Assembly: GCF_001693385.1 (NCBI RefSeq)
Contig: NZ_CP016428.1
Coordinates: 186,001 to 250,000, forward strand
Direction: 5' to 3'
Origin: Bradyrhizobium icense
GTDB taxonomy: Bacteria; Pseudomonadota; Alphaproteobacteria; Rhizobiales; Xanthobacteraceae
Length of the DNA: 64,000 bases
The notes beneath the pieces are model-generated. The model did not search any database. It saw only the letters and a program-made list of their open reading frames with translations, and had not been told where the DNA came from. The position numbers were made by a program, and so were the translations under genes. Positions 14,440 to 29,711 of this stretch are shown piece by piece. Positions within the stretch are counted from its first letter, which is position 1, and each line of letters starts with the position of its first letter.

Positions 14440-15576
14440 TCAGGCACGGCGGCTCACCCGGCCAGACTCGACGTCGAAAATCTCGCCGGTCGCTCCGATA
14501 TCGACGAACGCCGCTGGATCGGCACCGGTCATCCAGACCTGTGCGCCGAGCTTTGCCAGTTCATCGAACAGCGCCTTGCGCCGGCTGGGATCAAGATGTG
14601 CGACGACTTCGTCGAGCAGCAATAGCGGCACGATCCCGGTCATCTCGGCAACCAGGGTGGCATGGGCCAGCACTAGCCCGATCAGCAGCGCCTTTTGTTC
14701 GCCCGTGGAGGCGTCGCGCGCCGGCATGTTCTTCGGCGCATAGACCACCTGCAAGTCCGTGAGATGGGGACCATCCAGCGTGCGGCCGGCCGCGGCGTCG
14801 CGGGCACGGTTGGCGCGCAGGATCTCGCGGTAGCGATCCTCGACCGCGGTTGCGGATTCGTTGACCAGCGCGTTTTCCATCCAGCCGTCGAGCATGATCT
14901 GCGCCGATGGAAAGGCGGAGGCCGCGCCGCGTTCGCGCAGCATCGCAGCCAGTCTGGTTACGGTCTGGCCGCGCGTGGCGGCAACCGCAACAGCGAGCTC
15001 GGCGGTTTCGCGCTCGATCGCTTCGCACCAGTGGTCGTCATAATTGCGCACTTCGAGCAGGCGGTTGCGCGAACGCAGCGAGCGCTCCAGCGCCGAGACG
15101 CGGCTGGAATGCTCGCTGTCGATCGCCAGCACCAGACGGTCGAAGAAGCGCCGCCGCTCGGAAGCTGCGCCGAGGAACAGCCCGTCCATCGCCGGCGTCA
15201 GCCATACCATGCGCAAATGATCGCCGAATGCGGTTGCCGAGCTCACCGGCTCGCGGTCGATCCGGCAGCGGCGGCTGGAGGCGGCGTCCGCGGTCGGCGC
15301 ATCGATGCCGGTGCCAAGCGTGGCAAGCCCCAGCGCGCCCTCGACCTCGGCCGACACCGCCCAGGAGCCGTCACCCTGATTGTCGGCAACATCCTCCAGC
15401 GTCGCGCGCCGCAGGCCACGTCCCGGCGACAGAAACGAGATCGCCTCCAGGCAATTGGTCTTGCCGGCGCCGTTCGGCCCCACCAGCACCACCATATCGC
15501 CGCGCACCTGCACGCTCGCCGCGCGATAATTGCGGAAGTGCGTGAGCGACAGGCGATGGATGCGGGAGGGGGTCAT
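14440..15576 (-). CDS. recF: DNA replication and repair protein RecF
   Basis: RecF is an SMC-like ATPase that helps load RecA at single-strand gaps and restart stalled forks. The 378-residue protein has the N-terminal LTHFRNYRAASV, the Walker A box GPNGAGKTN, and near the C-terminus a signature-like ASTGEQKALLIGL and the Walker B LLLLDEVVAHLD. The order dnaA-dnaN-recF-gyrB is the common bacterial one. Only seven bases separate its ATG from the end of the upstream GIY-YIG cassette, and they contain no Shine-Dalgarno sequence, so translation may now be weak or depend on coupling. Confidence 0.98.
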   Translation of the reverse strand: MTPSRIHRLSLTHFRNYRAASVQVRGDMVVLVGPNGAGKTNCLEAISFLSPGRGLRRATLEDVADNQGDGSWAVSAEVEGALGLATLGTGIDAPTADAASSRRCRIDREPVSSATAFGDHLRMVWLTPAMDGLFLGAASERRRFFDRLVLAIDSEHSSRVSALERSLRSRNRLLEVRNYDDHWCEAIERETAELAVAVAATRGQTVTRLAAMLRERGAASAFPSAQIMLDGWMENALVNESATAVEDRYREILRANRARDAAAGRTLDGPHLTDLQVVYAPKNMPARDASTGEQKALLIGLVLAHATLVAEMTGIVPLLLLDEVVAHLDPSRRKALFDELAKLGAQVWMTGADPAAFVDIGATGEIFDVESGRVSRRA

Positions 15577-15583
15577 GCCAAGC

Positions 15584-15614
15584 TGTCATTGCCGGGCTTG
15601 ACCCGGCAATCCAT
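15584..15614 (-). repeat. Terminal repeat of the GIY-YIG cassette, recF side
   Basis: A 31-base sequence that is the exact reverse complement of 15920-15950. It is itself a hairpin: ATTGCCGGG, a five-base loop CTTGA, then CCCGGCAAT. It lies nine bases beyond the stop codon of the GIY-YIG gene and seven bases from the recF start. Confidence 0.95.
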
Positions 15615-15622
15615 CGTCCGCG

Positions 15623-15910
15623 CTAGCGGGCAATATCTTCGTATAAATCCCGCCAGTCGGGATTGCCCGCCACGATCAGATCGATTTTCCACTCGCGCGA
15701 CCAATGCTTGATGTTCTTCTCGCGTTGAAGCGCGACAGCAATTGTTTCGTGCGCTTCGAAATACACCAGTGTCTTGACGCCGTACCGTTTGGTGAAACCG
15801 TCTGCCAGACCTTCCCGGTGCTCGTATACACGCCTGATCAGATTGTTTGTTACACCGATGTACAGCGTTCCGCCTGGTTTGCTCGCGAGGATGTACACCC
15901 AATAGGTCAT
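15623..15910 (-). CDS. GIY-YIG domain endonuclease-like protein
   Basis: A 95-residue stand-alone GIY-YIG domain of the small YhbQ/UPF0213 type. It shows the YWVYILAS strand, the second signature strand GTLYIGVTNN, the catalytic Arg region LIRRVYEHREG, and a later QREKNIKHWSREWK segment containing the expected catalytic Glu. The length is that of a bare nuclease domain with no DNA-binding module. No Shine-Dalgarno precedes the ATG at 15910. Perfect inverted repeats flank the gene, which suggests that the protein and repeats work together, perhaps by nicking the hairpin ends. Small GIY-YIG proteins are common in rhizobial genomes and their role is not established. Confidence 0.93.
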   Translation of the reverse strand: MTYWVYILASKPGGTLYIGVTNNLIRRVYEHREGLADGFTKRYGVKTLVYFEAHETIAVALQREKNIKHWSREWKIDLIVAGNPDWRDLYEDIAR

Positions 15911-15919
15911 TTTTGTTTG

Positions 15920-15950
15920 ATGGATTGCCGGGTCAAGCCCGGCAATGACA
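15920..15950 (+). repeat. Terminal repeat of the GIY-YIG cassette, dnaN side
   Basis: Exact reverse complement of 15584-15614, with the same internal ATTGCCGGG / CCCGGCAAT stem. It begins nine bases upstream of the GIY-YIG start codon and ends eight bases from the dnaN stop codon. Confidence 0.95.
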
Positions 15951-15958
15951 GTTGGAGC

Positions 15959-17077
15959 TCAAACCCGCATCGGCATCAGCACGTAGAGGGCGCCTTTGTT
16001 GTCCTTGTCCTGCACCAGGGTCGGCGAGCCAGGGTCGGCGAGGCGGAGCACGGCGACGTCGCCTTCGATCTGGGCGGCGATGTCGAGCAGGTAGCGTGAG
16101 TTGAAGCCGATATCGAGCGCGTCGGAGGCGTATTCGACTTCGAGCTCTTCGGTGGCGCTGCCGGAATCCGGATTGGTCACCGACAGCACGAGCTTGCCGG
16201 CGGACAGCGCAAGCTTCACGGCGCGGCCGCGCTCGCTGGAAATGGTCGAGACGCGGTCGACGGCGGCCTCAAAGTCCTTCTTGTCGACGATCAGTTCCTT
16301 GTCGTTGTTCTGCGGAATGACGCGGCCGTAGTCCGGGAAGGTTCCGTCGATCAGCTTTGAGGTCAGCACGACGTTGCCGAGGGTGAAGCGGATCTTGCCC
16401 TGCGAAAGTTCGATTTTGACTTCGGCTTCATTGTCCTCGATCAGCCGCAGCACCTCGCCCACCGTCTTGCGCGGCACGATCACGCCGGGCATGCCGGTGG
16501 CGCCGGAGGGCAGTGCCAGATCGATCTGCGCCAGCCGATGTCCGTCGGTTGCAACCCCGCGCAGTGTCGCGGCCTTGGCGCTGCCGGCGGTGTGCAGGTA
16601 GATGCCGTTGAGGTAATAGCGGGTCTCTTCGGTCGAGATCGCAAACTGCGTACGGTCGATCAGACGCTTGACGTCGGCAGCCGCGAGCGAGAACGAATGC
16701 GTCATCTCGCCGGCGGCGAGATCGGGGAAATCGCTTTCGGGCAGGGTCTGCAGGGTGAAGCGCGAGCGGCCGGCACGGATGGCCATGACCGAGCGGTCGC
16801 CATCGGCCTCCAGCACGATCTGCGCGCCGTCGGGCAGTTTGCGGACGATGTCATAAAACATATGCGCCGGCACGGTGGTGGAGCCGGCCGTTCCGGTCTC
16901 CGCTGCCAGCGTTTCGGTCACCTCGAGATCGAGGTCGGTCGCCTTCAGCGACAGCCTGGCGTTTTCGGCGCGGACCAGCACATTGCCGAGGATCGGGATG
17001 GTGTTGCGGCGCTCGACCACGCGATGGACGTGACCCAGCGATTTCAGCAGTTGCGCGCGTTCGACGGTGACCTTCAT
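15959..17077 (-). CDS. dnaN: DNA polymerase III beta subunit (sliding clamp)
   Basis: The ring-shaped processivity clamp, 372 residues, in three similar domains. It begins MKVTVERAQLLKSLGHVHRV, has the middle-domain segment TQFAISTEETRYYLNGIYLH and ends with the clamp-binding pocket residues in ALYVLMPMRV. I start at the ATG at 17077; an in-frame upstream codon at 17119 adds non-conserved residues. It lies downstream of dnaA, separated by 327 bases containing two tandem palindromes. Confidence 0.99.
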   Translation of the reverse strand: MKVTVERAQLLKSLGHVHRVVERRNTIPILGNVLVRAENARLSLKATDLDLEVTETLAAETGTAGSTTVPAHMFYDIVRKLPDGAQIVLEADGDRSVMAIRAGRSRFTLQTLPESDFPDLAAGEMTHSFSLAAADVKRLIDRTQFAISTEETRYYLNGIYLHTAGSAKAATLRGVATDGHRLAQIDLALPSGATGMPGVIVPRKTVGEVLRLIEDNEAEVKIELSQGKIRFTLGNVVLTSKLIDGTFPDYGRVIPQNNDKELIVDKKDFEAAVDRVSTISSERGRAVKLALSAGKLVLSVTNPDSGSATEELEVEYASDALDIGFNSRYLLDIAAQIEGDVAVLRLADPGSPTLVQDKDNKGALYVLMPMRV

Positions 17078-17287
17078 TGCAATACCCGCCAGAGATGGAA
17101 AAGCCGGGCGGCCCGTCAAGGCAGCGCCGCGGCATTGGAAACCCGAAAAGCCGGATCAGGACCGGATTTGATCAAACCCCCGGGGGGACCGCAAGGTGGC
17201 GCGGATGGGGCGCCGGTGCAAGGGAGCAGGCCGCCGTTCCCCCACTTTTGCGGCGAAAAATGGCGGCAGAAAAAAATTCTCCCGCCC

Positions 17288-29592: not shown

Positions 29593-29711
29593 CGTCATTG
29601 CGAGCCAACGGCTCGCGCGAATGCGCGCCCGATGACAGGCTCCGCGAAGCAATCCATACCTGCCGCGGGGAGGGTATGGATTGCTTCGCCGCTACGTTCC
29701 TCGCAATGACG
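29593..29711. repeat. Palindromic intergenic repeat, family A copy 3
   Basis: Nearly identical to copy 1 at 968-1085: ends CGTCATTGCGAG and CTCGCAATGACG, the same CGCGCGAATGCGCGCCCGA segment and the same inverted GAAGCAATCCAT / ATGGATTGCTTC pair. It fills the space between the acyl-CoA synthetase and the VOC protein. Confidence 0.9.

What the first reader, a model, noticed from the sequence alone, without database searches (positions are those of the whole stretch)
15584..15950. GIY-YIG nuclease gene between perfect 31-bp inverted hairpin repeats, filling the dnaN-recF gap
The sequence shows a 95-codon GIY-YIG gene with an exact 31-base inverted repeat less than ten bases from each end. Each repeat is itself a 9-bp hairpin (TTGCCGGG-CTTGA-CCCGGCAA type). 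The unit fills the whole dnaN-recF spacer and follows operon polarity. REP elements and their RAYT transposases are an established single-gene parallel; GIY-YIG enzymes are known to cut DNA at specific sites. My inference is that this is a nuclease-repeat pair that can copy or move, with the hairpins as its substrate. I know of no description of such a system.
Basis: partly seen in the sequence, partly recalled or inferred. Interest (0 to 1): 0.85.

Follow-up and report, generated by a model that had tools for sequence, protein, structure and literature searches.

The report
Nuclease gene boxed by its repeats
A tiny gene for a likely DNA-cutting enzyme sits between two copies of a hairpin repeat; most related genes examined sit beside such repeats too, and within its genus enzyme and repeat sequence change together, which makes the enzyme a candidate partner for a large repeat family for which an earlier survey found none.

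Summary
In detail: a 95-aa GIY-YIG gene (15623-15910, minus) lies between perfect 33-nt inverted repeats in the dnaN-recF spacer. Each repeat is a textbook CGTC-type REP (tag TGTC, 9-bp stem starting AT, 5-nt loop, tail CCA); a 2013 survey said that superfamily apparently lacks a dedicated transposase. Genes of this GIY-YIG subfamily have such a REP within 250 bp in 36 of 47 relatives' loci and 112 of 137 wider loci, against 0 of 27 other GIY-YIG loci. Within the genus protein and hairpin co-vary at unrelated places (0 of 5000 within-genome permutations). Homology between copies at different places mostly stops at or inside the REP edge, and two other members show filled beside REP-free sites. 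So it is a nuclease-REP module that can insert as a unit. This copy itself looks resident: all 30 close orthologues found in 117 genus genomes are at dnaN-recF. The closest known system, recalled and not held here, is the Ssn family of single-strand GIY-YIG nucleases with NTS/dRS3 repeats; a Neisseria gonorrhoeae homologue is 55% identical and lies among dRS3-type repeats. Hairpin cleavage and the chemistry of spread are inferred.

The parts
15583..15615 (+). recF-side repeat arm (33 nt): CGTC-type REP, tag outward, tail CCA towards the gene
15919..15951 (-). dnaN-side repeat arm (33 nt), perfect inverted copy, tag outward
15584..15587 (+). TGTC tag of the recF-side REP (CGTC-tag variant)
   Evidence: sequence; tag rule from PMC3733652
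15588..15610 (+). hairpin, 9-bp stem, 5-nt loop
15924..15946 (-). hairpin, 9-bp stem, 5-nt loop
15947..15950 (-). TGTC tag of the dnaN-side REP
   Evidence: sequence
15623..15910 (-). 95-aa GIY-YIG nuclease (PF01541), REP-associated subfamily
14440..15576 (-). recF, downstream neighbour
15959..17119 (-). dnaN, upstream neighbour (ORF as listed; the true start may be internal)
   Evidence: ORF; name as for recF

Best explanation
The unit is a GIY-YIG REP module: a small site-specific nuclease gene flanked by its own cognate CGTC-type REPs, tags outward. SHOWN: the gene subfamily is specifically REP-associated; within the genus protein clades go with their own hairpin sequence; copies at different places share the REP-gene-REP stretch and as a rule nothing beyond; two other members have filled and REP-free alleles; gene-less REP dimers and single REPs occur at the same sites. 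INFERRED: the protein recognises its REP as a folded single strand and nicks it beside the tag (Ssn-like); in this way it spreads or maintains REPs in trans and now and then moves its own gene; gene-less REP dimers are partly internal-deletion derivatives. At dnaN-recF the module behaves as a resident, RAYT-like copy that is often lost or exchanged.
For: Association: REP (GTC + 6 outer pairs + CC) within 250 bp in 36/47 subfamily loci vs 0/27 other GIY-YIG loci (with 5 pairs 40/47 vs 1/27); 79 REPs per 23.5 kb near vs 6 per 81.3 kb beyond 600 bp; wider best-scoring set 112/137, 262 per 67.4 kb vs 37 per 226.8 kb; flank-to-flank inverted repeat of 14 nt or more in 74/137 vs 0/137 control windows (both control windows complete in 118). 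Co-variation: r=0.58 over 523 pairs in different genomes and places; within-genome permutation 0/5000 (null mean 0.08, max 0.57); hairpins match in 14 of 15 pairs at 80% identity or more, 0 of 128 below 50%. Unit: homology ends within 8 nt of the outer REP edge in 31/51 left and 31/45 right comparisons, beyond it in 1 and 3, short of it in 19 and 11. Sites: 412-nt insertion in G010 vs 2-3 nt in G547 and G555; Azospirillum lipoferum sufB-sufC 617 nt vs 91 and 87 nt without REPs. Internal deletions: G563, G518, G002. REP copies outside the read spacer: median 6.5 in 30 carriers vs 1 in 87 non-carriers.
Against: All 30 close orthologues are at dnaN-recF, none seen elsewhere at E 1e-38. Among 64 genus spacers none is as short as the roughly 50 nt of three out-of-genus spacers; the shortest are 74-77 nt, five of these six with REP arms left, and one (G560) with no REP by the rule. 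The carrier/REP-number link is not significant on the tree (13 independent pairs; on average 4.9 for, 1.2 against; median p 0.22), and three non-carriers hold 20-27 REPs. Both other subfamily copies in the own genome look broken. No target duplication was seen by eye. 11 of 47 and 25 of 137 subfamily loci have no REP by the rule. Cleavage was not tested.
Confidence: 0.55

Rival explanations
1. Host-serving Ssn-type nuclease: it cuts REP-bearing single strands (incoming DNA, lagging-strand hairpins) as a DNA-import or genome-stability factor. REPs are its markers and it does not move DNA.
For: One resident site in all 30 close orthologues found; the Neisseria homologue sits among dRS3-type repeats; recalled Ssn work links the nuclease to transformation.
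Against: Presence on the flank tree is scattered, 18 changes, no more clustered than shuffled labels; filled/empty alleles and copies at different places; copies with stops or fragments occur.
Confidence: 0.27
2. Cargo: REP pairs are MITE-like ends moved in trans by another transposase, and the GIY-YIG gene is a passenger.
For: Gene-less tags-out dimers are common (8 of 16 other copies in the own genome); the protein has no Pfam transposase domain.
Against: A passenger would not be expected to co-vary with the hairpin nor to be tied to REPs across Alpha-, Beta-, Gamma- and Deltaproteobacteria and several other phyla. PMC3733652 reports only a few fortuitous associations of CGTC REPs with transposase genes.
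Confidence: 0.13
3. Chance neighbourhood: REPs act as terminators or gather in intergenic DNA, and a small gene happens to lie there.
For: REPs are intergenic by nature.
Against: 0 of 27 other GIY-YIG loci from the same search have one; tags point outward (61 out, 18 in); co-variation.
Confidence: 0.03

Closest known systems
Ssn family of site-specific single-strand GIY-YIG nucleases with NTS repeats (Neisseria; Chenal ... Veyrier, Nat Commun 2025: recalled, not held)
   Same: Same domain; the Neisseria gonorrhoeae homologue is 55% identical over 89 aa, and all six REPs found in the 3.3 kb around it fit the published dRS3 pattern ATTCCC(N8)GGGAAT (PMC3898611, passages).
   Different: Here the gene is tightly boxed by its REPs, and other members show filled and empty alleles of the whole unit; ssDNA cleavage is untested; any tie to transformation is unknown. 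How far the Ssn paper covers flanking repeats or mobility could not be read.
RAYT/TnpA-REP with GTAG REPs and REPINs (REPtron)
   Same: A gene beside its cognate hairpins, dispersed gene-less tags-out dimers, resident copy.
   Different: GIY-YIG instead of HUH tyrosine transposase; CGTC/TGTC tag instead of GTAG; PMC8266576 states no evidence of tnpA-REP mobility (passages), whereas filled/empty alleles are seen here for other members.
CGTC-tagged REP superfamily (PMC3733652)
   Same: Tag, stem length, AT start, loop, CCA tail and tags-out (HH) dimers all match; passages list CGTC-1 and CGTC-3 in Bradyrhizobium.
   Different: The paper found no associated transposase gene; 'GIY' does not occur in its main text.
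UPF0213 GIY-YIG proteins
   Same: Best solved-structure relatives (1zg2, E 2.6e-11).
   Different: Other small GIY-YIG subfamilies in the relatives' genomes have no REPs (0/27).
GIY-YIG homing endonucleases (recalled)
   Same: Domain; possible self-spread.
   Different: No sign of an intron or intein: the gene lies between two whole genes and is flanked by hairpin REPs.

Membership tests
CGTC-type REP superfamily (the repeats) | Terminal CGTC, TGTC or CCTC tag | tested here: met
   TGTC; rule from PMC3733652
CGTC-type REP superfamily (the repeats) | 8-9 bp stem beginning AT, loop 4-5, tail CCA | tested here: met
   9 bp, ATTGCCGGG, loop CTTGA, CCA
CGTC-type REP superfamily (the repeats) | Dispersed copies, tags-out dimers | tested here: met
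   18 copies; 8 of the 16 others are tags-out dimers
Ssn nuclease family | GIY-YIG domain of the same subfamily | tested here: inconclusive
   55% identity to the Neisseria gonorrhoeae homologue; that this is Ssn is recalled
Ssn nuclease family | Cognate repeat around the gene and dispersed in the genome | tested here: met
Ssn nuclease family | Site-specific cleavage of single-stranded DNA only | not testable with these tools
   needs the protein
RAYT REPtron | HUH tyrosine transposase | tested here: not met
   only PF01541 found
RAYT REPtron | GTAG tag | tested here: not met
   TGTC
RAYT REPtron | REP number goes with presence of the gene | tested here: inconclusive
   median 6.5 vs 1, but tree-corrected pairs not significant
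Classical insertion sequence | Known transposase | tested here: not met
Classical insertion sequence | Target-site duplication | tested here: inconclusive
   none seen by eye at the two filled/empty sites

The most novel reading that the evidence does not exclude
GIY-YIG/CGTC-REP modules are a separate class of hairpin-ended mobile element: a nuclease without a transposase fold that nicks its folded ends and spreads both gene-less REPs and itself. They would be the unidentified source of CGTC REPs in Alphaproteobacteria and well beyond.
Probability: 0.4. Interest if true: 0.85.

Novelty: new variant of a known kind. Interest (0 to 1): 0.66.

Why it matters
PMC3733652 left open who mobilises CGTC REPs. 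The association, the co-variation and the filled/empty alleles name a concrete candidate enzyme and give cognate/non-cognate pairs that can be tested directly in vitro. If right, REPs are also spread by a nuclease unrelated to the RAYT/HUH enzymes, and the Neisseria dRS3 case is one instance of a system found in several phyla.

Tried and rejected
Chance neighbourhood of REPs: rejected. RAYT or ordinary IS: no such Pfam domain. A dnaN-recF spacer in the genus as short as the out-of-genus ones: none among the 64 read; I turned to other members' sites. Gene presence driving REP number: suggestive, not significant on the tree. A solved structure of an Ssn: no match so named. L090 locus for an empty site: no clean case in the listed hits. 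Papers: of the rows listed by the searches (titles and starts of abstracts seen; lists capped at 12-20) none ties GIY-YIG genes to CGTC REPs; passages of PMC12306157 and PMC5082802 did not either. The library lacks the Ssn paper, so I do not claim that this is unpublished.

Weak points of method: the third phmmer query (for L010) was mistranslated, so 2 of the 27 control loci (L010, L088) carry gene bounds from an overlapping wrong frame. 8 of the 82 loci given to one search had no hit and were dropped. The REP rule finds 3 sites in the window and 3 in the window read backwards, so single hits away from genes mean little. A stricter rule (7 of 8 or 8 of 9 pairs, loop up to 14) gives 20/47 upstream, 25/47 downstream, 16/47 both, against 0/27. 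The 137 loci are the best-scoring ones, not a random sample, and include the window's own place (L207). Pairs are not independent; the same few loci recur. One of the 42 loci given to (L081) is of another subfamily and did not enter the 35; four genomes there have one locus and cannot be permuted. The 20 non-filled sites read and the 20 spacers were picked by me from the hit lists. 10 of the 64 spacer rows did not enter the tree (short flanks or repeated genome). Own-spacer REPs were subtracted only for the genomes whose spacer was read.

Full report
What is there. The minus-strand ORF 15623-15910 encodes 95 aa with a GIY-YIG domain matched over nearly its whole profile. It sits 7 and 8 bases inside two perfect 33-nt inverted arms, 15583-15615 and 15919-15951, which with 6 and 7 further bases make up the whole 382-bp dnaN-recF spacer. 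Each arm is TGTC + ATTGCCGGG-CTTGA-CCCGGCAAT + CCA, i.e. tag, 9-bp stem, 5-nt loop, tail. This meets the features of the CGTC REP superfamily of Di Nocera et al. 2013 (PMC3733652, passages seen): tag CGTC/TGTC, stem 8-9 bp beginning AT, loop 4-5, tail CCA, dimers mostly with tags outward; Bradyrhizobium is listed there with CGTC-1 and CGTC-3. [quoted passage not shown] 'GIY' does not occur in its main text. The window's genus is taken to be Bradyrhizobium from its nearest named relatives.

Own genome. The 8.32-Mb genome has five PF01541 hits: the window gene; two more of the same small subfamily, both apparently broken (one with a TAG stop, one whose reading frame departs near its end); one of another small type; and one in a 714-aa ORF, presumably UvrC. 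The two broken copies also lie beside REP-like palindromes, of different sequence. The window's REP has 18 copies with up to 3 mismatches, control 0. Two flank the gene; the other 16 have no GIY-YIG relative within 1.5 kb, and 8 of the 16 are tags-out dimers 47-65 bases apart (2 of the 16 fail the strict hairpin rule and are counted as single).

Association. Of 82 GIY-YIG loci from relatives, 8 gave no protein hit and were dropped. Of the other 74, 47 are of the window's subfamily (60 bits or more) and 27 of other subfamilies. With the rule GTC + six outer Watson-Crick pairs + CC, a REP lies within 250 bp in 36/47 (both sides 27/47) against 0/27; with five pairs 40/47 against 1/27; density (six pairs) 79 per 23.5 kb against 6 per 81.3 kb more than 600 bp away; tags outward 61, inward 18. 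In the 137 loci read from these three calls (best-scoring; one, L207, is the window's own place), 112 have a REP on at least one side and 75 on both; 74 have a flank-to-flank inverted repeat of 14 nt or more, against 0 for windows 700 bp further out (both windows complete in 118 of 137). Loci with a REP include Alpha-, Beta-, Gamma- and Deltaproteobacteria, Omnitrophota, Ignavibacteriales, Nitrospinae, Anaerolineae, Uhrbacteria and Moraniibacteriota (record titles, many of them MAGs). On viral contigs 17 of 37 close relatives (90 bits or more) and 0 of 15 others have a REP.

Co-variation. In 35 genus loci with an outward REP (of 42 given; five-pair rule), pairs from different genomes that share no flanking DNA (523 pairs; 46 flank-sharing pairs excluded) show r=0.58 between protein identity and hairpin similarity. 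Shuffling REPs among the GIY-YIG genes within each genome gave a mean of 0.08 and a maximum of 0.57 in 5000 tries, none reaching the observed value. Share of pairs with matching hairpins (0.7 or more): 14 of 15 at 80% identity or more, 50% of 16 at 70-80%, 30% of 76 at 60-70%, 3% of 288 at 50-60%, 0 of 128 below 50%. The shuffle removes the explanation that any gene near REPs would do, since most of these genomes hold more than one class. Beyond the genus co-variation was not tested.

The unit. Between elements at different places, with REPs about equally spaced from the gene, blastn homology ends within 8 nt of the outer REP edge in 31 of 51 left and 31 of 45 right comparisons, runs beyond it in 1 and 3, and stops short in 19 and 11 (pairs not independent). 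So what is shared is at most REP-gene-REP, with those four exceptions.

Filled and empty sites. (a) The G010 locus: 12 of 117 genus genomes match the 1251-bp query end to end. Of 20 others that I picked and read, 15 have the two flanks 2-14 nt apart (between BLAST anchors), including G547 (3 nt) and G555 (2 nt) with flanks at 93-94% and 90%; G563 has a gene-less REP dimer (110 nt), G518 one REP (79 nt), and three have unrelated content (262-271 nt). The filled state is 412 nt in G010. Polarity (insertion, precise loss or import) is not settled. (b) Azospirillum lipoferum 4B plasmid AZO_p3 has the gene between sufB and sufC (617 nt) with a REP pair on one side and a REP with an imperfect partner on the other; A. 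ramasamyi (97.9%) and A. oryzae (96.3%) have 91 and 87 nt, B510 129, thermophilum 55, all without a REP by the rule.

The window's own site. Among 117 genus genomes 30 carry the close orthologue (85% identity or more; one is a fragment), all at dnaN-recF; six weaker hits (64-66%) lie elsewhere. In the 64 spacers read there are 30 GIY-YIG modules, 15 units with a DUF559 relative (in G012 only a weak piece) between another inverted repeat, 14 with REPs or REP pieces, 1 internal deletion of the module (G002) and 4 others. Outside the genus five spacers were read: G019, G028 and G030 about 50 nt (49-52, extrapolated from partial recF matches), G022 164 and G023 173. On a tree of 518 flank bases (54 rows) presence changes at least 18 times, 13 of them forced by supported branches, which is no more clustered than shuffled labels; the site turns over by loss, gain or recombination, and which of these cannot be told. 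REP copies outside the read spacer: median 6.5 in 30 carriers, 1 in 87 non-carriers (Mann-Whitney p 4e-6), but with 13 independent pairs the difference is not significant, and three non-carriers hold 20-27 copies.

Known relatives. A 2.17-Mb Neisseria gonorrhoeae record filed among plasmids encodes a homologue 55% identical over 89 aa, with six REPs within 3.3 kb, all of the form ATTCCC(N8)GGGAAT; there they are not a tight tags-out pair. The published dRS3 pattern is ATTCCC(N8)GGGAAT (PMC3898611, passages), and PMC3733652 equates Neisseria CGTC-1 with dRS3. From memory, and not from any call, the Ssn paper describes a Neisseria nuclease of this kind as cutting only single-stranded DNA at such repeats (NTS) and reports many homologues with their own sequences. 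If so, the window gene is probably an Ssn homologue and its REP is its site. For RAYTs, PMC8266576 (passages) says there is no evidence of tnpA-REP mobility and that the enzyme acts on single-stranded REP; that is the nearest parallel in behaviour, but not in protein.

Mechanism proposed. The protein binds its REP folded as a single strand (lagging strand or incoming DNA) and nicks near the tag. The invariant residues Y6, Y17, G19, R27, H31, E64 and N83 of 20 aligned members look like the GIY-YIG catalytic set, whose roles are recalled. Release and re-joining at another single-stranded stretch would spread REPs, and rarely the whole module; deletion between the two ends leaves gene-less dimers. 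Steps after recognition are inference.

Verdict. A real, ordered and widespread nuclease-REP module. The pair as such probably belongs with Ssn; mobility as a unit and the identity of its sites with CGTC REPs are what this work adds. This particular copy is a resident, not visibly a jumping one.

Noticed in passing
L032 (G001) 247-732 and the same dnaN-recF spacer in 15 of 64 genus spacers read: A DUF559 endonuclease-like gene (PF04480, 114 bits in G001; relatives in all 15, weak in G012) lies between inverted repeats of a different family (67 nt, 85% in G001): a second, unrelated nuclease-repeat unit at the same spacer. In G012 and G500 it lies next to a remnant of the GIY-YIG module's REP.
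   Followed up: partly
L038, L044 (G009, G014), dnaN-recF spacer: A third palindromic repeat (CCGTAGGGTGGGCAAAG...CTTTGCCCACC) fills the spacer.
   Followed up: no
L039, L304, L307-L309 (G010, G555, G547, G585, G528), dnaN-recF spacer: Spacers of 74-75 nt that keep an outer REP arm and tag on each side, as if DNA between the two hairpin loops had been lost.
   Followed up: no
L292 (G532), dnaN-recF spacer, 1672 bp: About 1.3 kb is inserted near the dnaN-side REP of the module.
   Followed up: no
L009, L012 (own genome); L003, L095, L116, L117, L120, L121: Copies of the GIY-YIG gene that look broken (stops, frameshifts or missing ends).
   Followed up: partly
L082, L086, L087 (both sides), L078 (upstream): Subfamily members without a CGTC-type REP but with other palindromes near the gene; possibly other hairpin classes.
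   Followed up: no
window 29593-29625: CGTCATTGCGAGCCAACGGCTCGCGCGAATGCG, resembling another REP class of the genus.
   Followed up: no
NZ_CP119142.1 and NZ_CP119140.1: Neisseria gonorrhoeae records of 2.17 Mb filed as plasmids, apparently chromosome-sized.
   Followed up: no
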